DNA of 64,000 bases, taken from NCBI GenBank assembly GCA_016618085.1, contig JABLTG010000092.1, positions 16,160-80,159 on the forward strand, written 5' to 3'. Below are positions 1-64,000 of this stretch, piece by piece. The notes under the pieces are model-generated. The model searched no databases. It had not been told where the DNA came from and saw only the letters and a program-made list of their open reading frames with translations. The position numbers and the translations under genes were made by a program. This DNA comes from Neovahlkampfia damariscottae (Eukaryota; Heterolobosea; Selenaionea; Neovahlkampfiida; Neovahlkampfiidae). How positions within the stretch are numbered: the stretch's first letter is position 1; each line of letters starts with the position of its first letter.

Positions 1-1040
1 AATCCATTAAAACCCCAAGAAAATATTGAATTATCATCTTTGAAAAAAAATGTTAGGGTTGGTTGATCATTTACTCAAAATGGCAACTGCGTGGAAACAT
101 CCACATGCGATTTCTTTGACATTTGAAATTGAAACTTTCATGAATTCTTTCTTCCAATTCTTATTTCCAATTCCCAGCTGACCAAAAGGATTCTCACCAC
201 ACGCATAAATAAAACCATCATCTGAAGAGAGTCACAGGAAAATAAATTTACCAGATAATGCATAAGAACTTGCTGTGTTGCATACAATCTGTTTGATATT
301 TGAGATTGGAATGATTTGAGGTGTTGATTGATTGATTGTATTTCCTAGACCTAATTGACCATCACTGTTCAAACCAAACCCATAAACAAGTCCATCATCT
401 TTAATAGATATTAAATCGAAACACTTTCTCTTACTTAATATTGCAAATGTATGAAAACGTCCACTTGCAATTTTTTTCACATTTGACAACTTCAAAGCAA
501 CAGGTTTTTTTTGGTCAATAGTATTTCCAATTCCAAGTTGTCCATATTTATTAGAACCTATAGCGAATATTTCACCTTTACCACAAAAAATAGAACCAAT
601 TTTATAACTGGATTTTAAAGAAATTAGATTATCAAGATTTGTTTCTTTATCAATGGATTGTTGAATTATTTGATGTTCTTTTTCATGTTTTTCAATGTTT
701 TTAAGTTCAATTTCCTTTTCAATGATAAATTTTTCAAATTCTTTTTTTTTATCTTCTATTTGTTGTTGTATCTCTGTTTTTTGATTTTGTATACATTCGA
801 GATGATCCAAAACAAGAAATGAGGATTGTAAATCTTGTTTCATTTTAAAAATAGCTTCTTCTAATGATATTATTTTGTGATTTATATGGTTTGTTGAGGC
901 ACATTTTGAACAAATTTTTTTTTCGTCATTTATGCAAAAGTATTTGAGTTCTTCTTGATGAAACTCACAGATTTCTTGAAGTTCAATTGTTTTTTTTACT
1001 TACTTGGAAGAGACGTTGTAATTTGATCAACTTGGTTCAT
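1..1040 (-). CDS. B-box zinc finger / RCC1-repeat protein (partial, runs off left edge)
   Basis: Exons on the minus strand are 1004-1040, 252-974, 75-221 and 1-37 (open). The three introns (975-1003, 222-251, 38-74; 29, 30 and 37 nt) each restore the frame. Exon 1 joined to exon 2 gives a complete B-box near residues 14-45: C-x2-H-x7-C-x7-C-x2-C-x5-H-x2-H. A coiled coil (about 60-125) follows, then RCC1-type blades with the GQLGIGN / GQLGLGN signature, repeated three times before the edge. B-box plus coiled coil suggests a TRIM-like scaffold with a beta-propeller; the RCC1 part alone does not prove Ran exchange activity. The start at 1040 follows an ATTGG box at 1082-1086. The C-terminus lies outside the window. 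Confidence 0.85.
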
Positions 1041-1205
1041 TTGTTGTTTGGGTGAGAACGATGATCAAAAAAAAAAAGTGTCCAATCAGCAAGAAGTTTC
1101 CATTTTTGTAGCATTTTTTGTAGGTATTCTTTTTTGTTTTTTTCTGAGTTTTTTTCGAATTCAGAATTGATTTTTTTCGTCCAATCATCACAAAAAAGCG
1201 AAAGT

Positions 1206-1865
1206 ATGAAGGTGAATGACATTCGTAGCTATGAAGAAAGAAGAAGGTGCATTCAAATTGTACAAAGAAATGGATTATTAAACTCTTTTCCTTTTGAATA
1301 TAAGAAAGACAAAATTATTGTTTTGGAGGCTGATAAAAATAATGGAATCTCTATACAATATTCTCATGAAGTAATGAAATCAAATAAAACGATAGCAGAA
1401 AATGCCATCATTCAAAATCCTTCGAGTGCCAAATATATTTCAAAAAACTTGAAAAAAGAAGACAAATTCATGACAACAATGCTAAAAAAATATTCCAGAG
1501 TTATTTGAACATGCAAGTGATTATCTGAAAAATGACAAACATTAATGGAATCTACACTTTAAAAAGATGGCAAAATACTAAATATGGTTCAAAAAATACA
1601 AGACAATGAGTCAATGGTAAAAATAGCATTTCAAAATAATTACAAATCATTTGAGTTTATAGTTGAAGAAACAGTCGTGTCCTTTGGTCAATTGAAAAAG
1701 AATCCACAAATTATTTCTTTCATATCTCCAAAATTGAGCAATGATTCCTTCATTTCCAAGCTGAAACTTAGAATATATCCATATTTACCTGATCAACTGA
1801 GGGATAACAAAGAAATCACAATGGAAGTTGTAGAGTTAAATAGAGATCATTTGGAGCAGATTTAA
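1206..1865 (+). pseudogene. DUF4116-repeat protein, frameshifted
   Basis: The start ATG at 1206 lies 20 nt after a CCAAT box (1181-1185). The first frame (to 1508) has about four units of the DUF4116 type, in which a D-K-x-(I/V)-V-L-x-A helix is followed by an S-x-x-Y/I-(A/S) turn. It ends at a TGA, but the +1 frame from 1501 continues the repeat (E-H-A-S-D-Y-L-K-N-D) for a short way before stopping. A third open stretch (1584-1865) still looks repeat-like. At least two disruptions point to a decayed member of a repeat family. No short GT-AG intron would repair it. Function of DUF4116 is unknown. Confidence 0.55.
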
Positions 1866-2168
1866 GAAAGGATATTGACATTGTAACAAGTGAAGTGAAG
1901 CAAAAGGAAATCCCTATCTTTTTATTCATTATACTTTGAGTACAGATACTGCAATTCTGGTTTTGAAAACCAAAAAGATTGTTTATCAGATTTAGCGTCA
2001 ACATCTAAAAGAAAACAAATTCGGAATACAATTCTTGATCATTTTTGTTTCATTCTTTGTTTCACTCCTGTTTGTCAAAAATTGCTTTATAAAGCTATTT
2101 CCTCGAGACTTCCAAAAAAGTCGTTTTTGATTTCAATAAATCGAAAAAGAAATTCAAGAAAAACACAA
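1866..2168. other. Gap between DUF4116 relic and secreted gene
   Basis: No convincing coding frame is seen. There is no CCAAT pentamer ahead of the next gene, but a TATAAA lies at 2088-2093, about 75 nt before the ATG at 2169. Confidence 0.4.
2088..2093 (+). promoter_or_regulatory. TATAAA element ahead of secreted gene
   Basis: TATAAA within CTTTATAAAG, 75 nt upstream of the ATG at 2169. This gene lacks the start-proximal CCAAT box found at almost all others, so a TATA-type promoter is an inference. AT-rich background makes chance occurrence possible. Confidence 0.3.
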
Positions 2169-3347: not shown

Positions 3348-3412
3348 ATATTTTTTATGTGAGTCCAGAGGCAATTCTTGTGATTCTAAAAATAGAAAAA
3401 TATGAATTTTTA

Positions 3413-4603: not shown

Positions 4604-5020
4604 TGTTTTGTTTCAGAATGAAATCATTGGTTGAAAAAAACTAATAATAACTGTCTTCTTTTTTCAATATTCATTAAACACAAGATGCCTGAAACTATTG
4701 GTTTTGTTCTTATGTTGCCTCACCTTGCAACATAAAAATGTCTTCACTTCTTTTCTTCCAATTATTTCAATCGTCCGAACTTCCAATGACTGAAGTTTTC
4801 TTTGAGTATCATGCTGGATGAGGAAATTCTTCCTCTTCTCTTATGTTTTCTGAAAGTCTTTGAATTTAACTTTAATTTTTTGATCATTTAAAGTTAATAA
4901 TTTAATAATATCTGAGCATCTCTCTTTTTTGTTGTGTTTGTACTTATGGAAGATTTTTTTCATGGGTTAATTTGATTGGTGTTCGCTGCCAGAGTTTTTA
5001 GTTTACTGAACTGGTAGCTG
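4604..5020. other. Divergent intergenic region
   Basis: About 417 bp without a supported gene. It holds ATTGG boxes at 4626-4630 (minus gene) and 4975-4979 (plus gene). A small hairpin is visible at 4712-4733 (ATGTTGC, 8-nt loop, GCAACAT). The only ORFs are shorter than 20 codons. Confidence 0.5.
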
Positions 5021-5959: not shown

Positions 5960-6071
5960 CGTTGTACTGTATTAGCCAATCGGAAACTCTCCTTTCCTTA
6001 AGTAGAAATTTTCTTGAACAAATCAAGGTATATAAACTTAAAATTGTTCAAAGTTAAAATTTCTTGTTCAT

Positions 6072-7055: not shown

Positions 7056-7115
7056 ATCCTTGAATATTTACTTTAAAGTTTGGTTGTTGAAGCGGTTTGT
7101 ACAGAAACTGTTTAA

Positions 7116-7120
7116 CCAAT
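7116..7120. promoter_or_regulatory. CCAAT box between F-box gene and small plus-strand ORF
   Basis: TTAACCAATGAG sits between the minus-strand ATG at 7055 and a plus-strand ATG at 7153, so it may serve both directions. Confidence 0.5.
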
Positions 7121-9761: not shown

Positions 9762-9810
9762 TTCACCAAGAAAAGTGAAAGGTTGGTAAATTGAAGGAAG
9801 GATGTATATT

Positions 9811-9815
9811 ATTGG
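9811..9815. promoter_or_regulatory. Shared CCAAT (ATTGG) box, divergent pair
   Basis: ATTGG lies between the minus gene starting at 9761 and the plus gene whose first ATG is at 9855, so one box plausibly drives both. Confidence 0.5.
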
Positions 9816-9854
9816 CTGGAACAGCCCAACAGAAATTAGTCGTAACACCTTGAA

Positions 9855-10358: not shown

Positions 10359-10395
10359 AGAATCTTTTGCTCATTGGTCCATTCTGCCTGTGAAG

Positions 10396-12635: not shown

Positions 12636-12736
12636 AATTAATGCATTTTTCAAAACTGAAACTGTGATTCTTTAATAGAAGTCTTCAAAACCATTCAAAA
12701 AATTATCCAATCAAAACCTCTCATTTTTTCATCTCA

Positions 12737-13237: not shown

Positions 13238-13256
13238 ATTGGTCAACTAAACCAAT
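13238..13256. promoter_or_regulatory. Double CCAAT box, opposite orientations
   Basis: ATTGG at 13238-13242 and CCAAT at 13252-13256, ending 18 nt before the ATG at 13275. Paired inverted boxes also occur at 21704/21720. Confidence 0.5.
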
Positions 13257-13851: not shown

Positions 13852-14917
13852 TTATTTCTTACAAAATAAAGAATCCATTCTTTTTAGGCATAAATCACGA
13901 ATTTTGATAGTATCTTCTTTCCAGTAAGCCAAACCTATTGCTGAGCCATTCAATTCAAGAATATAATCTTTTCCATCTTTTCCATGAGCCACATCAATAG
14001 CAAACCAATCTAAACCACCAAATATTTTGGTGCATTCATCTGCCCATAATTTGAATTCTGATGTCATTTCCATATCTTCATAATGTGAATTTCCAAAATG
14101 TGATTTCCAACCTTTTTCAGAAATTTAAATAGTTTAAAAATGAGATACCACTTCCATGGAATATTTTTTTATGAGCACGATAGTCATTTCCAATTTTTTC
14201 AATTCTCATTCCATATTCAATCTCAATATAAGGCTCAGCTGTGCAGTAATCACTGTTTAATGCTAATATAGTTGAAACATCTCTGAAAGCTTCGTAATTT
14301 TCAACTTTTATTTTTCCCATTCCTGCGTGCACATGAGATACTTTGATAACAGATGGAAACTGAAAAAAGAAAATTAACATTTAAAAAAATCAAACTTTTT
14401 CACAAATTACCATTCCATTATGTGTAGAGTAATATGTAACAGCTATTAAAGGAAATTTATCACCTAATCTTTTTTGGATTTCTTTTAAAGCTCCGTACAT
14501 GACTGGTCTTTCTAAATTCATATATTCTGACATACAAGAGTTCATTGAAGGTACACCAGACATCATAAGTCCTAAAAGTACATTTTTTCTATCAAGGTCT
14601 GGTGTTGGTCCTCTGAAAAAAAATATAAAAAGTTGAAAAAAAAACCTTGCTTGATTTCTGATAATAACAAAATCTGGTTTCACAATCAAACTTTTTGGTT
14701 TAACGAATTTTCCTTCTGATTCAACAACAGGAGACATTTGTAACATTGCTCCATCTGGGTAAACAACAATATCTGAGTCGTACCAAGATGTTTGAATAAT
14801 TCTCAATTTTGAACCATCTTTTAAAGTTTTATCTTCAAAAACATCAACCCAATTGTGAGTTTTATCACCATCAAATACAACAACTTGATAAGTCTTCACT
14901 TTTTTGTCTTGTGACAT
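13852..14917 (-). CDS. Synapsin-family ATP-grasp protein (C-domain only)
   Basis: Exons are 14646-14917, 14411-14612, 14149-14359 and 13852-14111; introns of 33, 51 and 37 nt. Total 945 nt, 314 aa. The joined protein follows the animal synapsin C domain in order: G-V-P-S-M-N-S, F-P-L-I-A-V-T-Y-Y, then F-P-S-V-I-K-V-S-H-V-H-A-G-M-G-K (ATP-binding lysine and glycine-rich loop), A-E-P-Y-I-E, K-L-W-A-D-x-C-x-x-I-F-G-G-L-D and H-G-K-D-G-K-D-Y-I-L-E-L. The Ca/Mg-ATP-binding fold is thus intact; animal A, D and E domains with phosphosites are absent. The ATG is 10 nt from CCAAT 14928-14932. Probable role: nucleotide-dependent vesicle or membrane association, inferred only from family. The nearest alternative is another ATP-grasp ligase, but the motif match is specific. 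Confidence 0.9.
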
Positions 14918-14988
14918 TGCGATACAACCAATGAGAATTCGACACATCACAATACTAATTTTTATCGCAAAGTTAATGGAAAAGATGT

Positions 14989-17076: not shown

Positions 17077-17133
17077 CACTGTTGTGTATCACTTTACAAG
17101 AGAAAGATATGATTGGTTAAAAAATGATAAGGT

Positions 17134-18570: not shown

Positions 18571-18661
18571 TGTTTCTTTGTAATTGAATTCACAACCGAA
18601 ATGTTTTTGAACCAATGATTGTGTTTCCAATTTATTTTTAGGTCAAAAAAGAAATTCAAGT

Positions 18662-20725: not shown

Positions 20726-20730
20726 CCAAT
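20726..20730. promoter_or_regulatory. CCAAT box 5 nt from hexosaminidase start codon
   Basis: On the gene strand ATTGG is followed by TTAAA and the ATG at 20720. If this box is a promoter element, the transcript leader must be extremely short. Confidence 0.5.
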
Positions 20731-21680: not shown

Positions 21681-21826
21681 GATTGGAATGTTGTAGTGAA
21701 ATAATTGGTTGATTGTTGACCAATAAATAAAAATTAGAACAATAAGCCCAAAAGAGAAAATTGGATATCCAGATTTGAAATTTTTAAATGATTAAAATCA
21801 AGTGGTCATATCACTGAATAAGTTAT

Positions 21827-22446: not shown

Positions 22447-22451
22447 ATTGG
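22447..22451. promoter_or_regulatory. Shared CCAAT (ATTGG) box between divergent genes
   Basis: The only CCAAT pentamer in the 61-bp space between the cytochrome b561 ATG (22415, minus) and the glycosyltransferase ATG (22477, plus); it lies 31 and 25 nt from them. Confidence 0.6.
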
Positions 22452-24243: not shown

Positions 24244-24306
24244 AAACAATAATAAAGATGAATCGATAAAAATTTGAATCCACCAATCATTTTCCAGATT
24301 AAGAGA

Positions 24307-25967: not shown

Positions 25968-25972
25968 CCAAT
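25968..25972. promoter_or_regulatory. Shared CCAAT box between divergent genes
   Basis: Single box in the 45-bp gap between the minus ATG at 25944 and the decarboxylase ATG at 25990. Confidence 0.55.
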
Positions 25973-27597: not shown

Positions 27598-27690
27598 ACC
27601 ATGTGATATTGAAAAAAAACAATGAAAATAACTTTCTTTTTCTAATTTAACCAATCAAATTGTTTGAAAGGTTCCTAAAATATTCAAGTT

Positions 27691-29916: not shown

Positions 29917-29973
29917 AGGAGATGTCTTGATTGATAAATTAATCCAATCACAAGAAAGTAATTTTGGAAGCAA

Positions 29974-30416
29974 TAAAACAGGATGGTAAAAAAAGAAAAC
30001 AATACTGATGGATGGTATTGTTCACTAAAATTTATGTTCCAGAAACAGTAAAAACTCTGAAGATAAATAATTTTATTTTTCAAATCCAAAGAATAGTTCA
30101 TCCAACGAGATTTTATTATTCAAAAAAACAACACAGATGCACAAAAAGAGAAAACTTGGACATCACTCACAACCAAACTCAACCACAACATTCACAAACA
30201 CCAACAAATTTCAAACCCTGAAACCCTCCGTTTTCTCTAAAAGAAACATGAAAACAATCCGAGCCATTTGTTTACCAAAAAATGTACTTTAAAATACTCA
30301 ATCTCTGAAAGCGTTGTTGGGTTGAAGATTAAATGAAATAAAAATTTTTTAAAAAAAAAAAATGGTTGTCTAAAAAAAATAGTCCAATTATTTCTGTTTG
30401 TTTTAACCATTTGCCA
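29974..30416. other. Intergenic region with A/C-rich stretch
   Basis: About 440 bp. CCAAT boxes at 29944-29948 and 30383-30387 flank it. The middle (30120-30210) is A/C-rich with repeated CACAA and ACCA words and no start-stop structure of a gene. Nothing else is supported. Confidence 0.4.
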
Positions 30417-30966
30417 ATGGTTTCAAAAGAAGAAAAACAATGTGTTTTGAAAGTAATACAAAATGGTGGTTCACTTCAATGTATATCCAAGGAATTACAA
30501 AACGACAAAGAAATAGTTTTGGAAGCAATAAAACTTGATGGTTATTCACTTCAATATGCATGCATCCAAAGAATTAAGCAATGATGAAGAAGTAGTTTTG
30601 GAAGCAATAAGACGAAATAGTTATTCACTTGTATATGCATCCAAAAAATTGAAAGAGGATAAACAATTCATTTTGAAAGCAGTAAAACAGGGTGGTCTTT
30701 CACTTGAATGTGCATCAGAGGAATTAAAAAATGATAAACAAATAGTTTTGGAAGCAATAAAACAGAATAGTACTTCATTTGAATATGCATCCAAGGAATT
30801 AAAGAAGGATAAAAAATTCGTTTTGAAAGCAGTAAATCAAAATTGCGTTGTACTTGCCTTTGCATCCAAAGAATTAAAAGAGGACAAAGAAATTGAATGG
30901 AAATCTAAAACATTTTTCAAATTCATCAGAGAAATTTCTGCATATAACGTTATGTTTAACTTATAG
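30417..30966 (+). pseudogene. DUF4116-repeat protein broken by a 4-bp duplication
   Basis: ATG 30417 overlaps CCAAT 30414-30418; another CCAAT lies at 30383-30387. Six to seven units of 24-25 aa follow, consensus D-K-x-I/F-V-L-x-A-I-K-x-N-G-x-S-L-x-Y-A-S-K-E-L. Inside unit 2 the word ATGC is doubled (30556-30563), shifting the frame; without the duplication one frame would run through to the stop at 30966. A very recent break, a slipped-strand event or an assembly error are all possible. The C-terminal tail (F-F-K-F-I-R-E-I-S) is not part of the repeat. Confidence 0.65.
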
Positions 30967-31196: not shown

Positions 31197-31219
31197 CCAA
31201 TCAATATCAGATCATCCAA
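31197..31219. promoter_or_regulatory. Tandem CCAAT boxes
   Basis: CCAAT at 31197-31201 and 31215-31219, same orientation, the second ending 6 nt before the ATG at 31226. Confidence 0.5.
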
Positions 31220-31225
31220 TCGAAA

Positions 31226-32134: not shown

Positions 32135-32407
32135 AATAAAGAACCTGTTTGTTTTTCATCAATTCAAAACCATGATTTTCAGTATTTGTTTGTGATGATG
32201 AAAAAAAGTTCATGTATATTTATTACATAATGTCAACAAAATCTTCACATCCGAATTCTTCAAAGAATGTACTAAATTCTGTAATGTTGTTACATCATCA
32301 AAAGTACAATCTTCAACGATATTCTGTAACAGTTGACTGCCAATTTTTGGAAGGTGATCATCTTTTCTTATTTTCACTCTTTTTCCATAGAATTAAATTC
32401 GGGACCA

Positions 32408-32782
32408 ATGGAAATTTCTTTGATCAAAAGAATCAAGTTCACTGATAAAACAAGAATTCGAAAATACAAATCATTCTCAACATTCGATTCAGATTCTTAT
32501 CCTAGAAAGGAGAAGGAAAGGAGAAAAGAGGAATTTTTGATTTTTAGAGAAGAAACTTCTGCAAAAATGGATATTTTAATTCATAAATTCGAAACGCTAG
32601 AAACAAAGATTGATCATGTTCAACTAGAAATTCAATCTGAATTGAAGAAAATCGAAAAATATCAAAATTCATGGATCAAATCATTATCTTCAGGTGTTTT
32701 TGCGATTATTTTGATATTGTTGTACTATGACTATTTCAATGCTTCTCGTAGTATTTTCAAAGAAGAAACAAACAAAAATTGA
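32408..32782 (+). CDS. Tail-anchored coiled-coil protein, copy 1 of tandem pair (124 aa)
   Basis: The ATG at 32408 overlaps a CCAAT box (32405-32409). The basic N-terminus is followed by K-E-E-F-L-I-F-R-E-E-T-S-A-K, a coiled coil of about 45 residues, a single C-terminal hydrophobic helix (S-S-G-V-F-A-I-I-L-I-L-L-Y-Y) and a short tail. The same layout and the E-E-F-L-I-F-R-E motif recur in the next gene, so they are tandem duplicates. Tail anchoring suggests an organelle or ER surface tether. The start is tentative; an upstream in-frame extension exists. Confidence 0.55.
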   Translation: MEISLIKRIKFTDKTRIRKYKSFSTFDSDSYPRKEKERRKEEFLIFREETSAKMDILIHKFETLETKIDHVQLEIQSELKKIEKYQNSWIKSLSSGVFAIILILLYYDYFNASRSIFKEETNKN

Positions 32783-32832
32783 ATTTCCAAAAACATTTTG
32801 ATCTCAAAAATCATTGGTCGAAGAATTTCTTC

Positions 32833-33189: not shown

Positions 33190-33622
33190 TCCTCAAAACT
33201 TCGGAATAAAATTTTTCAATCAATTGGATTTTGATTAAAAAAAGATTTAATTAAAATTCAATAATTCTGAACCTGAAAAATTGACAAACGCCTTCGCAAA
33301 ACGACATCACAAACAACAAAGATTCCCACATTTTATTACGACGTTCACAAATTCGTCACAAACAACAGTTTGGTCCATGGATTCACATAATTCTGCGCTT
33401 ACAAAATTTTTTTTGTAGCTGTGGATTTAAATCGTTGCTCACAATTATTCTTCAAATGTGTAAAAATGTTTGAATTTCTGTTGGTTGTGAAGATGAATCA
33501 GATTCCTTGAATTTTGGTGATTGAAAATTGAATAAATTCCAATTCTATTTTGGACCTAAATTCTTCCATTTTCTTGATCTCAATTTCCTTTCTTTTTTTT
33601 CACCAATCACTTTGTTGCAAAG
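33190..33622. other. Intergenic region
   Basis: About 430 bp without a supported gene. The word CACAAACAAC occurs twice (33289-33298 and 33357-33366) in an A/C-rich stretch similar in texture to 30120-30210. A CCAAT box at 33603-33607 serves the MYND gene. Confidence 0.4.
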
Positions 33623-34774: not shown

Positions 34775-34923
34775 TATTCATGACAATGCCTTCACACCAA
34801 AAAAATAACAAAAATTGTACAACACAAATACATTTAACAAAGAAATTGCAATTCACAACTTCATCTCGTTTTTACTTTTTTTCTTATTTTCAGTGCCTGT
34901 AGAATTGTCCAATCATTTTGTGG

Positions 34924-35733: not shown

Positions 35734-35866
35734 AATAAGAATCAAAAGACTTTACTTAATATAGAGGATCAATTTGATCTGTTTTGAACTGATCTTGCTA
35801 AATTTAGTATTTTTTGTTTTCAATAAATTCCAGGAGTTTTTGATGAAAAATCAGATTCAAAGAAAA

Positions 35867-36952: not shown

Positions 36953-37144
36953 ACATTTCAATAAAAGTTTCGTGCAAATTATTAACCCAATTAATTGTAA
37001 ATTAAACCAAGAATTACCCTAACAAAAATTATTCCAGAAAAAGATGTTAACTTTTTAGTTGAACTATAATTTGATATACTAGCAGCTGTTCACTATATTA
37101 ATTAAGGTAAATACTCACCATTGTTTTATTGGTTCGGAGTTTTA

Positions 37145-39121: not shown

Positions 39122-39126
39122 ATTGG
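39122..39126. promoter_or_regulatory. Shared CCAAT (ATTGG) box between divergent genes
   Basis: Only box between the minus ATG at 39082 and the plus ATG at 39158, 39 and 31 nt away respectively. Confidence 0.5.
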
Positions 39127-39157: not shown

Positions 39158-39670
39158 ATGTCTGGTAATTTAAAAATCTCAAAGCATAAAAGTTGGCATG
39201 TTTGGACCAAGGATAATATTGAAAGAGTTGAAAAAGATGAACGAGAACATGAAGAAAAAGAAAAAAAAAAAAGAAAAAGAGCAGAAGAAATGGATGAAGA
39301 AGAACGATACAAAAAATTAAAAAATCGTTCAAGAATAGAAAATGGACAAGAACCTGAAAAAGAAGAAAACGTAAATTTTTTTAAAAACTTTGAAGGAGAT
39401 TTAAATTTAATTGATTCTGACAAAACAAAGGAAGAAAAACGTGGAGGAACTCCATTGATACCTGAAAAGAAAAAAAAGTCCAGATTTGAAAACGTAGTTT
39501 ATTCAAACCTTAATACTGTAAATAAAGAAAAAGAAGAAAAAAAAACGAAAAAAATTAAACCTGTAAAAAAAGAAAAGAAAAGTATAGAAACATTACGTCA
39601 AGAGCGACTTGAAAGAGAATTAGAAGAAAAACAAAAAATACAAAAATTATTGAGAAAAAATCAAAAATGA
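39158..39670 (+). CDS. LENG1-like (CIR N-terminal domain) splicing-associated protein (170 aa)
   Basis: Start at 39158; the in-frame ATG at 39119 lies before the ATTGG box. The N-terminus H-K-S-W-H-V-W-T-K-D-N-I-E-R-V, then D-E-R-E-H-E-E-K-E, closely follows the CIR/LENG1 family opening (K-S-W-H-V-x-N-K-D-N-x-x-R-V-x-x-D-E). A highly charged body and a conserved-type tail (L-R-Q-E-R-L-E-R-E) follow. Family members associate with late spliceosomes, which suits an intron-rich genome. Confidence 0.8.
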   Translation: MSGNLKISKHKSWHVWTKDNIERVEKDEREHEEKEKKKRKRAEEMDEEERYKKLKNRSRIENGQEPEKEENVNFFKNFEGDLNLIDSDKTKEEKRGGTPLIPEKKKKSRFENVVYSNLNTVNKEKEEKKTKKIKPVKKEKKSIETLRQERLERELEEKQKIQKLLRKNQK

Positions 39671-39781
39671 TTGGATTAAAAATATGAATAAAAACTCCGA
39701 TTGGTTATTCAAAGTCAACGTTTTTTTGTTTTGAAAACTCAGTTGATTTCGTTCCATATCACAAAAACATATTAAGAACTC

Positions 39782-43829: not shown

Positions 43830-43851
43830 ATTGGTGTTTCATTTTGATTGG
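43830..43851. promoter_or_regulatory. Tandem ATTGG boxes ahead of Rab gene
   Basis: ATTGG at 43830-43834 and 43847-43851; the nearer lies 28 nt from the Rab ATG at 43880. Confidence 0.45.
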
Positions 43852-44674: not shown

Positions 44675-44886
44675 GAAAAAAAGAAATGTTTCATAAAGAT
44701 TAGTTTTTTAATTTTCTATTGGACCATTCCTCAGTTTTTGTTTTTTTGAGAACAAAAAAGTTTTTATTGACATTGATTGTTCATGTGAAAGTAGAGAAGA
44801 AAATTCTTGACAGTAAACATTTAGAAAAATTGAACCAATCAATGAAGAGATTCTCCAAACATTTTTTAACAACCAATTTTAGAAGA

Positions 44887-45849: not shown

Positions 45850-45854
45850 CCAAT
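45850..45854. promoter_or_regulatory. CCAAT box 4 nt from kelch-gene ATG
   Basis: TTAACCAATAGAA directly followed by the ATG at 45859. Confidence 0.5.
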
Positions 45855-47577: not shown

Positions 47578-47580
47578 CAA

Positions 47581-47611
47581 ATTGGCGATTATTGTGGTTT
47601 GGTTGTCCAAT
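47581..47611. promoter_or_regulatory. Two CCAAT boxes in a 59-bp divergent promoter
   Basis: ATTGG 47581-47585 next to the minus ATG (47577) and CCAAT 47607-47611 25 nt before the plus ATG (47637). Confidence 0.5.
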
Positions 47612-48636: not shown

Positions 48637-48838
48637 AACCCCTTTCTGAATTTTTGTTCGATGAAACTCAAACTTAAATGGCTTCATGACCTACTTCATG
48701 ATGAAAAAAAGTGATGGTTTTATTGATGATTTGGTATTTGTAGGGTAAACTGTTCAATTTACATTTTTCGCCCTTTTGGTACTTTTTCTTTTTTATTCTA
48801 CCAATCAAACAGCATTATTCCAAACTTGGAAACGATAA

Positions 48839-51800: not shown

Positions 51801-54800
51801 CAGAATTCAATATCTACAAGAGAACAAATTGGTCACTGAAAAAGAAATGAAAGAATTAAATCAAAATCATATTGAAGTGTTGAAGAAATTTGATGTTTCA
51901 CAAAACAAAATTGAATGGTTACAGTCATCAATACAACAAGAAACAGAGAACATTGAGAAATATAAATTAGATCAAGAGCTGAAGAGTGAACAAAGATTAA
52001 AATTATTCATTGAAGAACGAAAAAAAGTTGAAGATGAATTGAAAAAAGCAGAAAGAGAATTAATGAAACAAAAAATGCAACAATTTGCTGATAAAACTGA
52101 AATCAAAAGGGATTATCAAAATCAAATTTTTGATTTGAAAAATGAAATAACAAAGCTGACAAATAACTTTGGTATTGAAAAATCAGAATTGATCAGAACT
52201 TATAAAGATGAAAAAGATGAATTGGAACGTCAATTGAAGTCAAATGAAGAATTTTTCAAAGAGAAACTTGAAAAACAAAAAATCACTTTTGAATCACAAA
52301 TTGAATCAAAGGATGATCTTCTTGAAGAATACAAAGAAAAAATTGAATTTCTTGAAAAACAAAATTCGACCTTGGAGGGAAATTTAGAAGAAATCAACAA
52401 AAAACAAAATTTCAACAATCAAACTGAATCTCACACTTTGGAGCAACTGAGTGATTTGACTAAACAAGTTGAAGAACAAACAGAAAAATTATCTCATTCT
52501 GAAAAATTGATACATCAATTGGAAGCACAAGTTGAGATGAAAGATGAAGAAATTTTAAATTTACACAACACTAATGAAAAATATCAAAAATCTGTTTTGG
52601 AGTATGTTGATAAAACAGCCAAAATTCAACAAAAATATGATTCAAATATTGAAACACATGACAAAATGGAAAAAGATCTTCAAAATATTCAATCTACATA
52701 TCAAAAGTTATGTCTTGATCATGAAAAGATGACATCACTTCATCAGACTCAAATTGAAACTTTGAAACATGAAAAAGATAATATTTCTGAAGAATTGAAG
52801 ATTCAAACAGAAAAACTGCAATCAACAACATTGAAATTGGATGAATTATTGTCATCTTCTGGCAAAGCAGAAAACTCTTTGTTAGTTGAAATTTCAGATT
52901 TGAAATCGAAAAATAATTCATTAAATGAAAAAACTGAGGAATTGGATTCATTATTGAAAGAAAAGAATGAGACAATCTCACAATTAAAAGCTTTCAATTT
53001 GAGAGAATCTAAAAACGTTGATGAATTAAAAGATGAAATGAAGCAATTGAAAGAATCATTAAAAATGTCAGTGAAAGATAAAGAATCTGTAGGGAATCAA
53101 TTACAACAGGAAAGAGACAATTCATTATCGTCCATTGAAAAGTTGAAAGAAGAGAAAGAGTCCATGGAAAAAAATACACACGACAAAATACAAACTTTGA
53201 ACATTTTGATTGATGAATACAAAACTAAATTGAAAGAAAAAGAACAAGACTTATCTGAAAAAACTGATGATTTCAACAAAAAAATTGAAGATCTTTCAAC
53301 ACAAATTGAATCTGTTTCAAAGAGCAAAATGCAGTTGCAAAATGATATCAAAGAAAAAGAATCTTTAATTGCTCAGAGAGAACTAGAAAATTCTACTTTG
53401 AATAAGAAATTGATAGATGCTTCTGAAAAATTCAAAGAGTTTGAAATAGATGAAAAACTTCATGTCATTTCTGAAAACTTTGAGAAAGAGATTGTCAAGA
53501 AAGATGAAAAAATTAAATTGTTAAAAGAATCATTAGAATCTGCACAAACTAATAATATTCGCTTGGAAAAATCTGTTTCTTCATTTGAAGTAGAGTTGAA
53601 GAACAAAGAAAATATGTTACAAAATGTATCTGATCAGATGAAATCTGTCAAAGAAGAACTTCAGAAATCAAAATCTCAGAATGAAGAAACCATAAAATCA
53701 TTTGGTTTGAAAAAAACTGAACAATTCAAATTGTTGGAAGAAGATTTCCAAAAGAGTAAAAAAGATAATGAAAAAATTCAATCTACTTTACAAAATATGG
53801 AAAAAGAAATTCAATCCTTCAAGTTAGAGAATGAAAACTTGAAATCTCAAATTTCAACATTTGAAGTCCGTTTGAAAGATAAAGATACTCAAATTGAAAA
53901 ACAAGAAATTTTGAATGCAGACATTATCAAAGAGAAATCAACTGTCCAAAAAGAGAAACAAGATCTGTTAAATTCTATTTCCGATCTCAAAGTTAAACTT
54001 GAATCTGATAAATCAGCACATTTGACTGAAATTAATTCTTTGAAAGAGTTACAACAAAAGATAATTTCTGAGTTGAACCAAAAGTTAATTGATGTAAAAG
54101 ATGAGATGATGAAAGAAAAAGATACTTTCATTGCAAAATCAAACAAAGATTCTCAGGTGATATCTGAAATTCGTTCTGAAATGAATTCAAAATATGATAA
54201 ATTGGAAAGTGAATATCAAACAAAGGAAAAGTTAAACAAAGATATGATTTCAAAACTGAATACTGAAATCACAGAGTTGAAAGAAAATCATAAAAATTCA
54301 ACAGTGGACTTTGAAGAAAGAGTGAAAAATTTGTTAAACCAGAAAGCAGAAATCATTTCTCAACTGGAGAATACTCAAAGAGATTTGATTTCAGATAGAG
54401 AAGACTATCAATCAAAGTTGAAAGAAGCTTCCAAAACTGATAAACAAGTTACAGAAGAATTAGTCACTTTGAAAAAAACAAATGATGAACTCAGCTTGTT
54501 GAAATCATCATTGTTGGATGAAAATAAATCTCTTGAAGAAAAAATCACATCGCTGAACATTTTAGTGGAAGATAAAACTTCAAAATTGAAAGAAAAAGAA
54601 ATGGGTTTGTTGAAAGAAAATGAAGAAAATATTTCAAAGATTCATGAATTAACTATTCAAATTGAAAAGTTGAAGACAATTCAAGAAGTCAATCTTGAAA
54701 GTTGGAATCAAAAAGAAGCTCAATTCAAAAATGAAATTTTAGATCTCAAAAAGCAGTTATCAAATGAACAGTTGACTCATTCTGATGGTAATATTGTTGT

Positions 54801-57800
54801 TGAAAAATTAGCACAAAAAACAAAAGAGTGTGAAACACTGACTGAAAAGAACACACAAATTCAAAATGATTTGAGTGATATATCCAACAAAATGCAGTTA
54901 CAGAAAGAGCAATTTAGTTCTGAACAATTAAAACTGCAGCAACATTTTGATGAAAAACTTAAAATTGAATCATTAAATTTCAAGAAAGAATTGGAAGAAG
55001 AAAAATCTAAATTCTACAAATTCATTCAAGATGCAAATGAAAAATCATCTTCAGAAAGACAACAAATTTTTGAAAAATCAGAACAAAGATTTCAAGATTA
55101 TCAGAAAGAGATTGAATCACATAATAGCAAATTTCAACAAGTTTCTCAGCAACGCCAAAAGGAAATCAAACAATTGGAAGAAGAAAAAGTTCAATTATCT
55201 CAACAAATTACAAATTTAGAAATGAAATTAAAAACATCAGAAAATTCCCTTGGTTTATTGAAACAACATGAAGAATCTTTATCCAAGAAAATTGAAGAAA
55301 TGAATGAGCAATCATTGAAAATCAAAGAAACATATGATTCAAAAATTCAATCATTAGAAAATGATAAAACTTCATTGAATATTGAAATAAAGAACTTGAA
55401 TGAAAAAATGCTTTCAGAACAATCAAAGTTTGCAGAAATCAATAGAAATAAAGATGAAGAATTGCAATTGAATCAAAATTTGATAAAAGAAAAGGAAACA
55501 TTGTTAAAAGATCAAATTGATGAATTAATGAAATCGAGAACAGAAAAAGATTCAGAAATTGAGAAAAAACAAAAAGATTATGAATCGGAAATTAAATCAT
55601 TGGCATCACAAACAGAATCTCTTCAAGAAATAATCAAATCATCTGAGTTGAAAGAAATTGAATTATTCTTGCAAATCAAACAATTAACAGATAAAATTCA
55701 AAATTCGAAAGAAGAGAATGATCAATTGATTCTCGAATTGAAAGAAAAACAAAGTTTGATTGGTGAAATGAACATCTCTAAAAATACATCATCCAACAAT
55801 ATGACTTTAATCCAAGAAAAATTGAAAAACATTGAAAAGGAAAACGTTGAATTGAAACAAACTCTTGAACTTAAAAGCACTAAATTAGATGATTCGAACA
55901 CAAACTTGGAAAAGGTTACTTTAGAATTTGAGTCTTTGAACATTGAGAATGAAAAATTGAACAATTCTGTTGCTCAATATACAAAAGATATTGAAGAAAT
56001 GACGAAATCAAAGGAGAAACTTGAAATTGATTTGAAAACAAAGAATGATGAATTTTTCAATCTAAAACAAGAACTCAACAAATCAGAATCCCAAAATTTA
56101 ATGTTACAAAAGGACATCAAAGATTTGAAAGAAGAAAAAGAAAATTTAAAAATTCAAATTACTCAGATTCAACAAAAATATGATTCAAAATCAACTGAAC
56201 TTCAAGGAACAATAACTAAAATTGAAAAAGAATTGAATGACTCTGTGCTTGAAAATGAAAATAAATCGGGTAAAATTGAATTGTTCCAAGAGAAGATTCA
56301 AACGTTACAAAGTGAAATTGATGAAAAAAAGAAACTTTTAGTTGATAAAGATTTGGTCATTAGCAATGAATCACAAGAGAAAAAAGATTTACAAAAAAAT
56401 TTCACTGGGAAACTAGAATCTCTTCAAAATGAAATCAAAGATCTTCATTTGAAATTGGAAACAGAGAGATACACTTTTGAAAAAGAAAAGAAAGATTTGA
56501 GAGATACATTTGATCAAAAAGAATCACGCCTTAATGAGAAATACGAAAAAATTGATGGAAAAAATAGAGAATTGCAATCAGAAAATCTAGAATTGAACAA
56601 AGAGAAAGAGAAAGCATTGTCAAATCTTGAAGAAAAGGAAATTGTTTCTAGAAAAGAAATTCAGGGATTGAATACAATCATTGATCAATTAAAATCTGAT
56701 AAAACTGAGAAAAAGCAAACAATTAAAGAATTAAAGAAACAATTAGATGAACAAAAGAGTAAATTCTTTGAATCACTTCAAGAAAATTCTCTCAAGTTTT
56801 CAAATGAAGTTAAAGATTTGAGAATGAATCATGATAAAGAAAAAGAAAAATTGTATGAAATTTCAGAAGCAACTCGTTTGTCTTATGAAAAAGAAAAAAT
56901 ACAAATGAATCAACAAATTGAAAACATCCGCCTGGCCACTGACAAAACTGAGAGATATGCCGCTCAAATCAAAAATCTTGAACAAAAACTGGAGAACTCT
57001 GGTGAAGATATGAAAGAACTTCAAGCAAAATTTTCAAAGGAATCTGAAGTCTCTTTGAATCAAATCCATAAATTGGAAGGTCAATTAGAAGAAAAGAATA
57101 ATAAAATTGATCATTTAAATCATGTAATTGAATCAAAGGATTTGTTGATAAATCAACACAAGAAAAAAGAATTAAATTTTCAACTGGAAAGAGCTGAGTT
57201 TGAGAAAAATATTCAATTAGCAAATGCAAAAGCAGAAAAAGATATTGAAAAGTTGTATCATCAAATTGAGCATGAACAATCACTTGAAAATCATACCAAA
57301 GAATCAATAGTATCAGAAAAACAACAATCAATCATCAATCAAAGAATTGAATTAAAAGAAAAGATTGCAGTCCAAGAAGAGAGAATTTCATCATTAAACA
57401 AACAAGTAGAAAGTTTAGAAGAAACCAAATTTGAACATCAAAACCAAGTGAAAGAGTTGAAACAAAAAGTTGAGAAATTAGAAAAAGAAGACACCATCCT
57501 TCATGAAAAGAATCATAAATTGAATCTAGAAATTCAAGAATATAAAAATAATGAATCAAAGAGGGATATGATAGAAAAATCACTTCAACAAAAGATTGAT
57601 GAACAAATTTTAGAGTTGAATGATTGTTATGCTCAAGCTAAACAAGATCATCAAATGATTCAAGACTTCAATGAGAAAATATCAAATCATAAAGTAAAGG
57701 AAACAAAATTAACAGTGAGCTTGGAAAATACAAAACAACAGTTGGAAAACGAGAGAACTGAAAGTGCTGAAAAATTACAATCAACTGAAAAATCATTGAA

Positions 57801-59874
57801 AGCTGATATCAAGGCAATGGAAAAACATTTGAATGGAATAATTTCCGATTTGCAAACTAAGAATTCAGGTTTAGAAGATACTGTGGAAGAATTCAAATCA
57901 AAATATCTTCATACTGAATCTGAATCTCTAAAAAAAGAAGGAAATAAAGAAATGTTAGAAAAAGAACTGTCAAGGGCCAAAAGAGACAATCAATCACTTT
58001 CAGTACGTGTTAATAGACTGGAAGAGGAAAATTATGAATTAGGATTAGATCTCGATTCAATTGAATCAGAAATAGAAGAAAAAGAAAAAAAGAGAGGAAG
58101 TGGAGTATCAAAACTCTTGACAAATCTTGTAAAAATTGGAAAGAAGAAGGATGATGGAATGATGTTAAAACAAGATTCACTTGGAAATCTCACTTCAAGA
58201 ACCAGAGGAAATTCTCTTTTAACTGCAAGATCTCGAAGAGGAAGTAATGTATCAAACACACCAAGACTATCATCATCTGCAAATCCAACACCTCTTGGAA
58301 AAAGTACTTTCAAAATTGCAATACCACAAGAGAAATTTCAAAAAGATTTTTCACCAAAGAAATTTGATTATGAAGATGAACCACTACATTCACCTGTATC
58401 TGTTATTGATTTTGATCCACCAAGTTCAAATTCTCCATACAGAAAATCACCACATTCAAATTCTGATAACAATGAATCACCATTGAATTCACCAGTTATG
58501 AAAGTTGAATCAAATAGAGATTTCAGATTAAACTTGAATAAATCATTTCACAAAGATAAAGTTAAATTGGAATTAAGTGAATCATTAGAAGATCATTATT
58601 CAGATTATGATGCATTGGTTAAAGAAAAACTTCAATTGAGTACCAATTTATCTTATGCAAACAAACAAATTGAAACATTGAAACAACAATTAGATATTTC
58701 AAAAATTGAAAGAGCTGCTCAAGAAAAACGTGTTCAAAAATCAACTGCTGCATTAGCTGACAAAGAAAAAGAAATCAAAAATTTACTTAATCAATTCAAA
58801 TCTAGTGGTAATAATATGATTGCATATTCAGATCAAACAAAAGCATTAAATGAAGAAATTCATAGATTAAGTGAAGAAAAACATGAACTTGAAAATAAAT
58901 TGATTGATATTGAATCAATGAATGGTAAATTGAATACAATGATAAATTCATTTTCAAATGATGTTGATTTCAATGAAATGAAAGAAATCTTTTTACAAAG
59001 ATATATGTCATCTGTTAAAAACATTGATGATGTAGATGCGTATGTCAAGCAAATTGAAAAATTGAAAGCTGATAATGAAAAAACTGAAAATGCTCTGAAC
59101 AATGTTTGTGCTGAAAAAAGAAATCTTGAAAATGAAGTTGATAGAGCTCAAATGAAGAATTCTGAACTTATTACACAAAATGAAACACTTGAAGCTGAAA
59201 TTAAATCAATTAAAGACAAATATGAAATTGAATTGAATTTATCAAATTTGAAATATAACACTGTGTTTAATGAATACGTTAAAGCGATGAATCAATTGAA
59301 AATGTCAGAAACATTCTTGGATGAAGCTACTGAACAAGGAATTGCAGTCAGTAACATTTCAAAAGATTTAGAAAATGAAGTTAGTAAAATTGAATCAAAA
59401 CAACAATACAAAATGAATTTGAAAGAATCAGAAATGGAAAAGAAACTTCAGAAAGTATTGGATGAGAATTCATCTCTTCATTCGAATCTTAAAGAATTTC
59501 AAGAAATAGCAAAAGAAAAAGAAGAGTTATTCCATGCTCAACATGATCAATTGGATGCAAAAATAACAGGTTTGAAGAAAGATTTGGAAGCAAAGGAAGA
59601 AGAAATAAGATCTCTCAAAAAAGCATTCAAAGAAAAAGAAGGAGATATTGCAGCAGCAAAGAAAAAAAATATGGCAACTAAGTTGAAGTCAATCAAGGAG
59701 AAATTAAAAGAATCACAAGAGGAAGAACTAAATAAATCAGTTGGTAGTTTTGTGGGTTCTCAATCCGCAAATAGTTCATTCATTGTGACTTCTCCTCGTG
59801 GTGAAGAAGAAAAACCATTTGAATTGAATATGATTGACAAAGAAAAAAAACAAAAATCACCAAAGTACTTGTAA
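48839..59874 (+). CDS. Giant coiled-coil protein with N-terminal membrane anchor (3,621 aa)
   Basis: Exons 48839-48871, 48901-48980, 49016-49319, 49357-49440, 49475-49648, 49684-59874; introns 29-37 nt; 10,866 nt, phases exact. The small second exon gives a 21-residue hydrophobic segment (V-F-F-V-T-T-I-S-L-F-I) at about 12-35. Residues about 50-3020 are nearly uninterrupted heptad coiled coil, rich in E, K, Q, S, L and I, without motor or known head domain. A Ser/Pro/Arg-rich break at about 3025-3180 has many S-P sites (N-S-P-Y-R-K-S-P-H, L-N-S-P-V-M-K). Coil resumes to about 3590, then a short tail with S-P. It is giantin/kinectin-like in style: a membrane-to-structure tether. CCAAT 48801-48805 is 33 nt from the ATG. 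Confidence 0.85.
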
Positions 59875-62315: not shown

Positions 62316-62531
62316 GTTTAAACTAAGCAGCAATAAAAGTCCTGTCCAATGAATACTATTTTTCCATTTTAGTACAAGAATAGACCACCATTTTAAAATT
62401 TATCACTGGACAGTCCATCAGAAGATCAAAAGCATAAGACCATTTGACGTTCCAAAAGGAAATCAATTCGTCAACCACAAAAACACATCAAAAAAGTCAA
62501 AAATAATAAATGAGAAGATTTAAATTATGTT

Positions 62532-63190
62532 TTACATTTGGTCTAAAGAATGAACGATTCTTTTTCTGTGTCCAATCAATGATATTCCAATTTCTTTCAA
62601 TTCTTCATCTGAAACTGAATGAGCTTTCAAAAAATTGAAATCTTCAAAACCATTATCCATAAAATTCTTTTCATATTGATCTAATTGAATGGAAGACAAC
62701 CAATCTTTCACCGAATCAAAAGTAACGACTTTTTTAGTTTTTGATTTTGACCAATGATTCCTTTTTTTTGGCGGGATTATTTTATTTTCATTTTGCAATA
62801 TATCAACAGATTCTTCGTGAACTTTTCTTGATGGTCTTGTTGTTCTTCTTTCAGTTATTATTTCGTCCAATTGAAAATCTTTTTGTTGAAAAATTAAAAA
62901 ATTAAAATCCCAAAACCTTTTGTTATGTTCTCTTTTTTCTTTTTTCTCCAACCTATTGGTCTTCCTCTTCTTCTTCTTACTGGTTCTTTTTCACCGTTTT
63001 CATTTGAAACACCAATTTCTTCTTCTTCTTTGTTCAGCTGATCATTTTCTAGTTCATCAACTTTTTTAACTTGAGTTTTTTTTTTTTGTGGTGAAATATA
63101 TGAGTCACCTTTTTTCCATCCAAAAGGTCTTCCTCTTTTTTTTTTTTGTGGTTCATTTTGTGTGTTATTCTCTGTTTCTGGTGTTGACAT
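62532..63190 (-). CDS. AT-hook and SAM domain protein (206 aa)
   Basis: Exons 62917-63190 and 62532-62878; 38-nt intron; phases exact. Two AT-hooks lie in the N-terminal half: K-K-K-R-G-R-P-F-G-W-K-K and R-R-R-R-G-R-P-I-G-W-R-K, each with the G-R-P core for minor-groove binding of AT-rich DNA. The C-terminal 65 residues form a SAM domain (V-K-D-W-L-S-S-I-Q-L-D-Q-Y, then D-E-E-L-K-E-I-G-I-S-L-I-G-H-R-K-R-I). A chromatin or transcription factor able to oligomerise is the natural reading. The ATG is 46 nt from ATTGG 63237-63241. Confidence 0.8.
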
Positions 63191-63283
63191 CACTTTGTTT
63201 TACTTCGATCCACTTTTTTGATGATTTTAAATTTTCATTGGTGAAAAAAATTTAACGGCTAATGAATCTTGGTTGTTCAATAG

Positions 63284-64000
63284 AAAATACCACGAGATGC
63301 TTTAGATTATGCTATTCAGCAATATATCTGTAATGTTCACAGTTCAACAGAAATGCTGAAAGAAAAACAAAAGAAAACAAACAAAAAAATCAAATTAGAA
63401 GCAAACATGAAAAAAAGAACTGAAAAAATGTCTCAAAGTGTTGGAATACCAGTCAATGGTGGTAAACCAAGTATTAAATGGAATGAAGAAGGATTTTTCT
63501 TTTGGCCATCTTATAAACTTGGAGCATTAAAAACTGCTCAAAAAAGAGAAATTAAAAGATTATCAAATGTAGTTGGTAAAGAATCAAGTGATAGAACTTG
63601 TATTTTAAAATATCAACATGGAAGATATTATATGATTATTCCATTTGTTGCAAAAATTAAGAAAAAAGATGAAAAAGAGAAAAAAATTATTGCACTTGAT
63701 CCTGGAGTGAGAACATTTCAAACAGGATTTGATAACTTTTGAAAATTTACGGAATATGGAAAAGGTGATGTTTCAAAATTATTTAAAAATGCGTTGAAAT
63801 GTGATAAAATTCAATCTGAGATTGATAAAAATAAGTCTAATGATAAAATGTCAAAAGAAGAAATAAAAAAATTAAAAAAAAAAAGATATAAATTGAAGAA
63901 AAAATATCAAAACCGAATTCAAGGATTGAAAGAAGCATTTCATAAAAGTGTTTCCAAAGATCTTTGTGAAAATAATGATGAAATTTTGATTTCAAAATTT
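63284..64000 (+). pseudogene. Fanzor (eukaryotic TnpB-like RNA-guided nuclease) fragment, cut by right edge
   Basis: The open frame starts after a stop with I-P-R-D-A-L-D-Y-A-I, matching the TnpB/Fanzor linker. It continues through a K-rich region, S-I-K-W-N-E-E-G-F-F-F-W-P, and reaches the RuvC-I motif I-I-A-L-D-P-G-V-R-T-F-Q-T-G-F, whose Asp is catalytic. A single in-frame TGA (63740-63742) follows; the same frame resumes with Y-G-K-G-D-V-S-K-L-F-K and later R-I-Q-G-L-K-E-A-F-H-K, as in Fanzor1 proteins. The N-terminal wedge domain is missing or in an unseen exon, and RuvC-II/III lie beyond 64000. Probably an inactive insertion; no terminal repeats are visible at the left. Confidence 0.8.

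What the first reader, a model, noticed from the sequence alone, without database searches (positions are those of the whole stretch)
1..64000. A CCAAT pentamer sits beside almost every start codon
Seen: CCAAT (either orientation) lies 0-60 nt before the ATG of roughly 35 of about 39 genes, and up to 77 nt for one more. Examples: 1181 to ATG 1206, 10373 to 10396, 14928 to 14917, 22447 to both 22415 and 22477, 33603 to 33623, 62346 to 62315. Extended consensus is about W-A-C-C-A-A-T-S-A, as for NF-Y. Rough chance estimate, assuming about 28% GC: one pentamer on either strand per about 550 bp, so about 0.1 per 50-nt window. Animal NF-Y boxes sit 60-100 nt upstream of the transcription start; here the box replaces a visible TATA or initiator and is far closer to the gene. 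It looks like a genome-wide core promoter element.
Basis: partly seen in the sequence, partly recalled or inferred. Interest (0 to 1): 0.85.

Follow-up and report, generated by a model that had tools for sequence, protein, structure and literature searches.

The report
CCAAT boxes beside nearly all genes
In this compact stretch of an unidentified, probably single-celled eukaryote's genome almost every gene has a CCAAT box within a few dozen bases of its start codon, which makes a familiar accessory promoter element look like the main signal for starting transcription.

Summary
With a gene finder blind to the motif, 33 of 48 predicted starts have CCAAT/ATTGG within 60 nt upstream, against 8.7 +/- 2.5 (maximum 16) in 300 dinucleotide shuffles, 56 of 314 internal Met codons and 15 of 48 3' flanks. 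CCAAT is the most enriched pentamer. In 42 curated starts, chosen with the boxes in view, 38 have it within 60 nt and 39 within 70; of the 31 left as the blind finder put them, 28. CCAAT[C/G]A has 28 of its 56 copies in the 4.4% of the window that is proximal promoter. Flanks fit NF-Y sites, orientation is free (27 forward, 22 reverse), and four divergent pairs with ATGs 45-75 bp apart share boxes, though only one pair rests on unmoved starts. No ATG lies between the nearest clear box and the start in 39 genes (968 nt); the 40 nt upstream of the box show only a weak deficit. This suggests initiation at or beside the box. No TATA enrichment was found. Best reading: a near-universal NF-Y-type promoter element placed unusually close to the gene. 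Factor, TSSs and organism are unverified.

The parts
1082..1086 (+). CCAAT box (strand = strand reading CCAAT), 46 nt before ATG 1040(-)
1181..1185 (+). CCAAT box, 25 nt before ATG 1206(+)
4626..4630 (-). CCAAT box for ATG 4603(-)
4975..4979 (-). CCAAT box for ATG 5021(+)
5976..5980 (+). CCAAT box for ATG 5959(-), an ORF the blind gene finder did not call
7116..7120 (+). CCAAT box for ATG 7055(-) (also 37 nt before small ORF 7153(+))
9811..9815 (-). CCAAT box for ATG 9761(-); lies in a doubtful predicted exon 9802-9841
10373..10377 (-). CCAAT box for ATG 10396(+)
12707..12711 (+). CCAAT box for ATG 12737(+)
13238..13256 (.). two CCAAT boxes (13238 -, 13252 +) for ATG 13275(+)
14928..14932 (+). 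CCAAT box for ATG 14917(-), synapsin-family gene
17112..17116 (-). CCAAT box for ATG 17076(-)
18612..18631 (+). two CCAAT boxes (18612, 18627) for ATG 18570(-)
20726..20730 (+). CCAAT box for ATG 20720(-)
21682..21724 (.). three CCAAT boxes (21682 -, 21704 -, 21720 +) for ATG 21680(-)
22447..22451 (-).
24283..24287 (+). CCAAT box for ATG 24307(+)
25968..25972 (+). CCAAT box between divergent ATGs 25944(-) and 25990(+), 45 bp apart (both are the most-upstream in-frame ATGs)
27651..27655 (+). CCAAT box for ATG 27691(+), XRN-family gene
29944..29948 (+). CCAAT box for ATG 29916(-)
30384..30418 (+). two CCAAT boxes (30384, 30414) for ATG 30417(+); the second overlaps the ATG
31197..31220 (+). two CCAAT boxes (31197, 31216) for ATG 31226(+)
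32340..32409 (+). two CCAAT boxes (32340, 32405) for ATG 32408(+); the second overlaps the ATG
32813..32817 (-). CCAAT box for ATG 32833(+), in a 50-bp intergenic gap
33603..33607 (+). CCAAT box for ATG 33623(+)
34909..34913 (+). CCAAT box for ATG 34924(+)
37128..37132 (-). CCAAT box for ATG 37145(+)
39122..39126 (-). CCAAT box between divergent ATGs 39082(-) and 39158(+), 75 bp apart (both unmoved blind starts)
39670..39704 (-). two more distant CCAAT boxes (39670, 39700), 112 and 82 nt before ATG 39782(+)
43830..43851 (-). two CCAAT boxes (43830, 43847) for ATG 43880(+), Ras/Rab-family gene
44835..44839 (+). CCAAT box ending 2 nt before ATG 44842(+)
45850..45854 (+). CCAAT box for ATG 45859(+), in a 47-bp intergenic gap
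47581..47611 (.). two CCAAT boxes (47581 -, 47607 +) between divergent ATGs 47577(-) and 47637(+), 59 bp apart; 47577 is my reading through a short intron, not a blind start
48801..48805 (+). CCAAT box for ATG 48839(+)
62346..62350 (+). CCAAT box for ATG 62315(-)
63237..63241 (-). CCAAT box for ATG 63190(-)
2131..2141 (+). TTTCAATAAAT, 38 nt before ATG 2169(+), a gene without CCAAT within 120 nt
35818..35828 (+). TTTCAATAAAT, 25 nt before ATG 35843(+), a paralogue without CCAAT within 120 nt

Best explanation
The boxes are double-stranded DNA binding sites of an NF-Y/HAP-type CCAAT-binding trimer and act as the dominant, near-universal proximal promoter element of a compact protist-like genome. 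Shown from sequence: presence at nearly all curated genes, NF-Y-type flanks, free orientation, position within about 70 nt of the start codon, boxes lying between close divergent genes, and absence of ATGs between box and start. Inferred: the trimer keeps the short intergenic DNA free of nucleosomes and lets the initiation complex assemble beside it, so that transcription starts at or within a few tens of bases of the box and mRNAs carry very short 5' leaders whose first AUG is the start codon. A box between two divergent genes 45-75 bp apart would serve both. What sets direction is not known.
For: Enrichment with blind gene models and shuffle, internal-Met and 3'-flank controls. First of all canonical pentamers upstream of curated starts (49 copies against 10.1 expected, in 39 of 42 genes). 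De novo EM finds TGATTGGT upstream of blind starts and TaACCAATCA upstream of curated starts (llr 114 and 145; coding control 68). 28 of 31 unmoved blind starts in the curated list have a box within 60 nt. CCAATSA is 21.7-fold concentrated in proximal promoters (28 of 56 copies in 4.4% of the DNA). Flank columns differ from 183 non-promoter CCAATs at the two bases after the pentamer (p 2.7e-8, 4.9e-8) and the base before it (p 1.8e-4), agreeing with the published NF-Y matrix DVV-CCAAT-SNV (PMC4833383, passages seen) and CCAAT(c/g)a (PMC4982600, passages seen). Orientation 27 F / 22 R. Divergent and tandem intergenic DNA has 7.4 and 8.9 boxes per kb, convergent 2.5, coding 3.1. Out-of-frame ATGs between the nearest clear box and the start: 0 against 8.0 expected (curated), 0 against 7.0 (mechanical list), 1 against 7.7 (blind list). 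In mouse, NF-Y maintains the nucleosome-depleted region and TSS fidelity (PMC6624317, passages seen).
Against: No NF-YA/B/C gene could be sought. TSSs are not mapped. Known NF-Y sites lie further out (median 94 bp upstream of the TSS in mouse); here the median is 27 nt before the ATG. In genes 44842, 45859, 20720, 14917 and 34924 the only box within 70 nt ends 2-10 nt before the ATG, so it either lies in the transcript or the mRNA is almost leaderless. In 3 of 39 genes (4603, 25990, 63190) the nearest box itself carries an ATG. The ATG deficit begins gradually: the bin just upstream of the box has only 2 ATGs in 39 genes, and the blind list has 3 in-frame ATGs between box and start. 13 of 48 blind starts have no box within 80 nt, and half of all CCAATSA copies (28 of 56) lie outside the proximal promoters, 23 of them in predicted coding DNA. 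The curated list was made with the boxes in view, and three of the four close divergent pairs include moved starts.
Confidence: 0.65

Rival explanations
1. The same DNA-level promoter element, bound by a factor that is not NF-Y, for example a lineage-specific initiator-binding protein that converged on CCAAT.
For: The position at or near the inferred TSS resembles an initiator more than a classical NF-Y box; some protists use divergent initiator factors (Trichomonas, recalled). No NF-Y gene has been seen (none could be sought).
Against: The flanks (C/G then A after the pentamer, A/G before it) fit the NF-Y matrix; free orientation is unlike an initiator. NF-1-type GCCAA half-sites (motif recalled) do not fit: G at -1 in only 6 of 44.
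Confidence: 0.2
2. A conventional NF-Y accessory box: other, unseen core elements set the TSS, and the box sits close to the ATG only because leaders and intergenic regions are short.
For: NF-Y boxes elsewhere are accessory; in Phytophthora CCAAT lies a median 83 nt upstream of the initiator and mostly within 150 nt of the ATG (PMC3599244, passages seen). Tandem gaps here are often 37-111 bp. YYANWYY, a generic initiator word, is slightly raised (65 against 48-59).
Against: No TATA enrichment (1 TATAAA against about 2 expected) and no second sense-strand motif above the one coding control run, at width 10 (69 against 88); a degenerate initiator in 42 sequences could be missed. Where the only box ends 2-10 nt before the ATG there is no room for 60-100 bp to a TSS upstream of the ATG.
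Confidence: 0.25
3. An RNA-level signal in the 5' leader (translation, or leader processing).
For: Close spacing to the ATG; of the boxes within 10 nt seven are forward and one reverse.
Against: 27 forward and 22 reverse copies and boxes lying between close divergent genes suggest a double-stranded reading. Forward CCAATG boxes would put an ATG ahead of the start in three genes.
Confidence: 0.04
4. Chance or gene-calling bias.
Against: Blind starts, mechanical starts, shuffles and internal controls; unmoved starts.
Confidence: 0.01

Closest known systems
NF-Y (CBF/HAP) CCAAT box of animals, plants and fungi
   Same: CCAAT followed by C/G and A, purine before it, both orientations, near promoters.
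   Different: Here it is in 39 of 42 curated genes, a median 27 nt before the ATG; in mouse cells 3,191 genes had promoter-proximal NF-Y and 21,195 did not, with sites a median 94 bp upstream of the TSS (PMC6624317, passages seen).
CCAAT box of Phytophthora infestans (oomycete)
   Same: CCAAT in equal numbers of both orientations, mostly within 150 nt of the start codon, T-rich 5' flank (PMC3599244, passages seen).
   Different: There 1,953 hits in all promoters, a median 83 nt upstream of a separate initiator; here near-universal in the window with no initiator found.
NF-Y of Entamoeba invadens
   Same: Protist NF-Y that binds CCAAT (PMC6581852, passages seen).
   Different: In E. invadens CCAAT is in 354 of 900 cyst-specific promoters and is not enriched at any promoter position.
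Compact-genome core promoters with short leaders (Trichomonas vaginalis)
   Same: Short 5' UTRs and few core elements (PMC7370421, search listing with start of abstract only).
   Different: Those elements are directional (recalled); this one is a non-directional CCAAT box.
CAAT-box-like motifs of Cryptosporidium parvum
   Same: A protist with CAAT- or CCAAT-box-like upstream motifs (PMC3734150, passages seen).
   Different: Found upstream of subsets of genes, such as Class II oocyst wall protein genes, with other consensus forms.

Membership tests
NF-Y-type CCAAT box | CCAAT core with S then A/R on its 3' side and purine-rich 5' flank | tested here: met
   C/G right after the core in 33 of 44, then A in 34 of 44, A/G at -1 in 32 of 44; non-promoter CCAATs differ; matrix from PMC4833383 and PMC4982600
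NF-Y-type CCAAT box | Occurs and works in either orientation | tested here: met
   27 F and 22 R relative to the gene; occurrence only, function not tested
NF-Y-type CCAAT box | Position about 60-100 bp upstream of the TSS | tested here: inconclusive
   TSS unknown; median 27 nt before the ATG, so probably much closer than 60-100 bp
NF-Y-type CCAAT box | Genome encodes NF-YA, NF-YB, NF-YC | not testable with these tools
   No genome is held for this window
NF-Y-type CCAAT box | Bound by the trimer in vitro and in vivo | not testable with these tools
   Needs EMSA or ChIP
Core promoter element | Lies at a fixed place within about 40 bp of the TSS | tested here: inconclusive
   Indirect: no ATG between box and start, only a weak deficit upstream; spacing to the ATG is loose (3-65 nt)
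Core promoter element | Present in most promoters, which lack TATA | tested here: met
   39 of 42 curated starts within 70 nt and 35 of 48 blind starts within 80 nt; TATAAA 1 observed, about 2 expected
NF-1/CTF half-site (TTGGC/GCCAA; motif recalled) | G immediately before CCAA | tested here: not met
   G before the CCAAT core in 6 of 44 boxes

The most novel reading that the evidence does not exclude
In this lineage the CCAAT box has become the core promoter itself. An NF-Y-type histone-fold trimer would define the initiation site of nearly all genes in place of TATA or initiator, and one box in a gap of 45-75 bp would drive two divergent genes with almost leaderless mRNAs.
Probability: 0.4. 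Interest if true: 0.78.

Novelty: new variant of a known kind. Interest (0 to 1): 0.6.

Why it matters
NF-Y is a highly conserved eukaryotic transcription factor, but where it has been studied it serves a subset of genes as an accessory factor. A genome in which nearly every gene carries its box next to the start codon would be a natural minimal system for asking how a nucleosome-like trimer sets transcription start sites. It might also give a simple rule (the first ATG after a CCAATSA) for annotating genes in this genome.

Tried and rejected
Chance and gene-calling bias: rejected by blind starts and controls. RNA-level signal: rejected as main reading because orientation is free. TATA and TCAWTT words are not enriched; YYANWYY is slightly raised (65 against 48-59 expected). 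Second motif after masking boxes: llr 51 (width 8) and 69 (width 10) against 88 for the sense-strand coding control, which was run at width 10 only. One-substitution variants of CCAAT: none enriched, best p 0.15. The boxless paralogues 2169 and 35843 share TTTCAATAAAT, found nowhere else in the window; it could be a degenerate box or merely paralogue descent.

Organism: not identified. Anaeramoeba was considered from memory; PMC11550330 (passages seen) gives 80.65% A+T for A. ignava and says that the A. flamelloides assemblies are almost six times larger with only twice the genes, neither of which fits this gene-dense window of 71.6% A+T well. Relatives: two window proteins and the synapsin-family protein found none in viral contigs; the Ras/Rab query found one locus there and 56 in genome contigs, 42 of them archaeal by title. 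None matched both the window's GC (0.284) and its CCAATSA density (0.88 per kb); one Heimdallarchaeota contig, L051, is close in GC and in plain CCAAT density. Start-aligned counts were not made on these loci. Rfam and tRNA scans gave no hits. Literature searches; in these listings I saw no report of a near-universal CCAAT box beside start codons, but only this library was searched, each listing is capped, and the organism is unknown.
Full report
What the window is. It is 64 kb at 28.4% GC, with dense genes carrying short introns: 32 of 51 predicted introns are 29-38 bp. Pfam hits include XRN 5'-3' exonuclease, RGS, ankyrin, PARG and Sel1, synapsin and trypsin, and Ras, RCC1, MYND, Kelch and DUF4116. 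The gene finder assumed the standard code; of its 48 models 27, 17 and 3 end in TAA, TGA and TAG, and one runs off the end. I take it for a eukaryote, not a virus or prokaryote. No genome is held for it, no close relative was found, and the species is unknown.

Checking the observation without bias. I wrote a small HMM gene finder (codon-position Markov model, GT-AG introns) that knows nothing of CCAAT. Of its 48 starts 26, 33, 35 and 38 have CCAAT or ATTGG within 40, 60, 80 and 120 nt upstream; 300 dinucleotide shuffles of the same segments give means of 6.8, 8.7, 10.5 and 14.4 and maxima of 14, 16, 19 and 27. The most upstream in-frame ATG instead gives 32 of 48 within 60 (shuffle 7.9). Where both rules agree, 25 of 35. 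Controls within 60 nt: 56 of 314 internal Met codons and 15 of 48 3' flanks. Among canonical pentamers upstream of blind starts CCAAT ranks first (44 copies against 12.9 expected, p about 1e-11). Box density is 7.4 and 8.9 per kb in divergent and tandem intergenic DNA, 2.5 in convergent intergenic DNA and 3.1 in coding DNA.

Curated starts. Some HMM starts look wrong, and I corrected them by reading frames and likely introns. I knew the boxes while doing this, so the curated figures are weaker evidence than the blind ones. Of the 42 curated starts 31 are unmoved blind starts, 10 were moved and one (5959) was added; 7 of the moved ones equal the mechanical most-upstream ATG. Three blind starts were judged internal (9188, 26409, 47956) and four left out as uncertain (1584, 7153, 9802, 63353; one of the four has a box within 70 nt). 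In the 42 the box is within 40, 60, 70 and 90 nt in 32, 38, 39 and 40. In the 31 unmoved it is within 60 nt in 28; in the 11 moved or added, in 10. Two genes have no box within 120 nt: 2169 and 35843. They are paralogues (29% identity over 245 positions, E 3e-18) and share the 11-mer TTTCAATAAAT at -38 and -25, found nowhere else in the window.

Anatomy of the box. In the 44 unique boxes within 70 nt of a curated start the flanks are T at -4 (31 of 44), A/G at -2 (33), A at -1 (26), C/G just after the pentamer (33) and A next (34); the 183 other CCAATs lack the last two preferences (p 2.7e-8 and 4.9e-8). This is the pattern published for NF-Y. CCAATSA occurs 56 times in the window: 28 in the 4.4% that is proximal promoter (21.7-fold), 23 in predicted coding DNA and 5 elsewhere; three control pentamers were not enriched (0.4- to 1.1-fold). 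Orientation is free (27 F, 22 R) and the nearest box begins a median 27 nt before the ATG. Eight of 42 genes have two boxes within 70 nt and one has three, 14 to 65 nt apart. Four divergent pairs with ATGs 45, 59, 61 and 75 bp apart have their boxes between them. The 75-bp pair (39082/39158) rests on unmoved blind starts. The 45-bp pair (25944/25990) rests on most-upstream ATGs. The 61-bp and 59-bp pairs each include a start (22415, 47577) that neither mechanical rule gave. Tandem gaps of 37, 42, 47 and 50 bp occur, so the end of one gene and the promoter of the next fit there.

Where transcription starts. No TSS data exist here, so I used ATG triplets as a proxy: scanning ribosomes should not meet an ATG before the start codon. 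Between the nearest box that lies clear of the start codon and the start, 968 nt in 39 genes hold no ATG (12.1 expected in mononucleotide shuffles). Counting only out-of-frame ATGs, which choosing the longest frame does not remove, 0 are seen against 8.0 expected; the mechanical list gives 0 against 7.0, and the blind list 1 against 7.7 with 3 more in frame. In the 40 nt upstream of the box 18 are seen against 23.5 (p 0.13). So the scanned region seems to begin near the box. Limits: numbers are small, shuffles were mononucleotide, the upstream stretches include parts of other genes, and the bin just upstream of the box is also low (2 ATGs in 39 genes). In 3 of 39 genes the nearest box itself contains an ATG; if transcribed it would precede the start, which hints that transcription begins after it there. 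In genes whose only near box ends 2-10 nt from the ATG, either the box is transcribed or the mRNA is nearly leaderless.

Other elements. TATA words are not enriched, and after masking the boxes a sense-strand motif search gives nothing above the coding control run at the same width. A weak initiator could be missed in 42 sequences; YYANWYY is slightly raised (65 against 48-59).

Mechanism. The best reading is an NF-Y/HAP-type site working on double-stranded DNA, present at nearly all genes of the window, that opens the promoter and places initiation beside it. The sequence facts above are shown; trimer binding, nucleosome exclusion and TSS placement are inferred. Support for the mechanism comes from mouse, where NF-Y keeps the nucleosome-depleted region and TSS choice (PMC6624317, passages seen).

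Compared with what is known. NF-Y boxes are old and widespread. What differs is coverage (39 of 42 curated genes), closeness to the ATG, and being the only visible element. In mouse cells bound sites lie a median 94 bp upstream of the TSS. In Phytophthora CCAAT lies a median 83 nt upstream of an initiator. In Entamoeba invadens it is not positioned. I therefore rate it a new variant of a known kind. Membership in the NF-Y family of sites is met on sequence and orientation, untestable on the protein, and inconclusive on position.

Noticed in passing
2131-2141 and 35818-35828: The two genes without a CCAAT box (2169, 35843; by eye secreted-looking and N/K-rich, paralogous) share TTTCAATAAAT at -38 and -25, unique in the window; possibly a separate promoter class.
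   Followed up: partly
13852-14917 (-): A synapsin-family gene (Synapsin_C E 2e-48, Synapsin N-terminal domain E 1e-8) in a protist-like genome.
   Followed up: no
whole window, e.g. introns 11079-11108 (+) and 19420-19454 (-): 32 of 51 predicted introns are only 29-38 bp, by eye often with GTAAG-like donors and a TAAC-like motif near the 3' end.
   Followed up: no
30417-30966 (+): DUF4116-repeat gene whose reading frame is broken near 30530; its pieces were searched apart.
   Followed up: partly
49753-59874 (+): A single open reading frame of 3,373 aa; the first 150 residues of its gene model look coiled-coil-like by eye.
   Followed up: no
63353-64000 (+): Gene cut by the window end with a stretch that recalls TnpB/Fanzor-like proteins (from memory; no Pfam hit for its first 150 residues).
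   Followed up: no
L001 1-11254: IMG/VR contig with ORFs that look phage-like by eye at one end and a Rab-like GTPase at the other; may be chimeric.
   Followed up: no
L002: Contig titled as a Verrucomicrobiaceae MAG with a Rab-like GTPase at 50% identity and 60% GC; possibly a eukaryotic contaminant.
   Followed up: no
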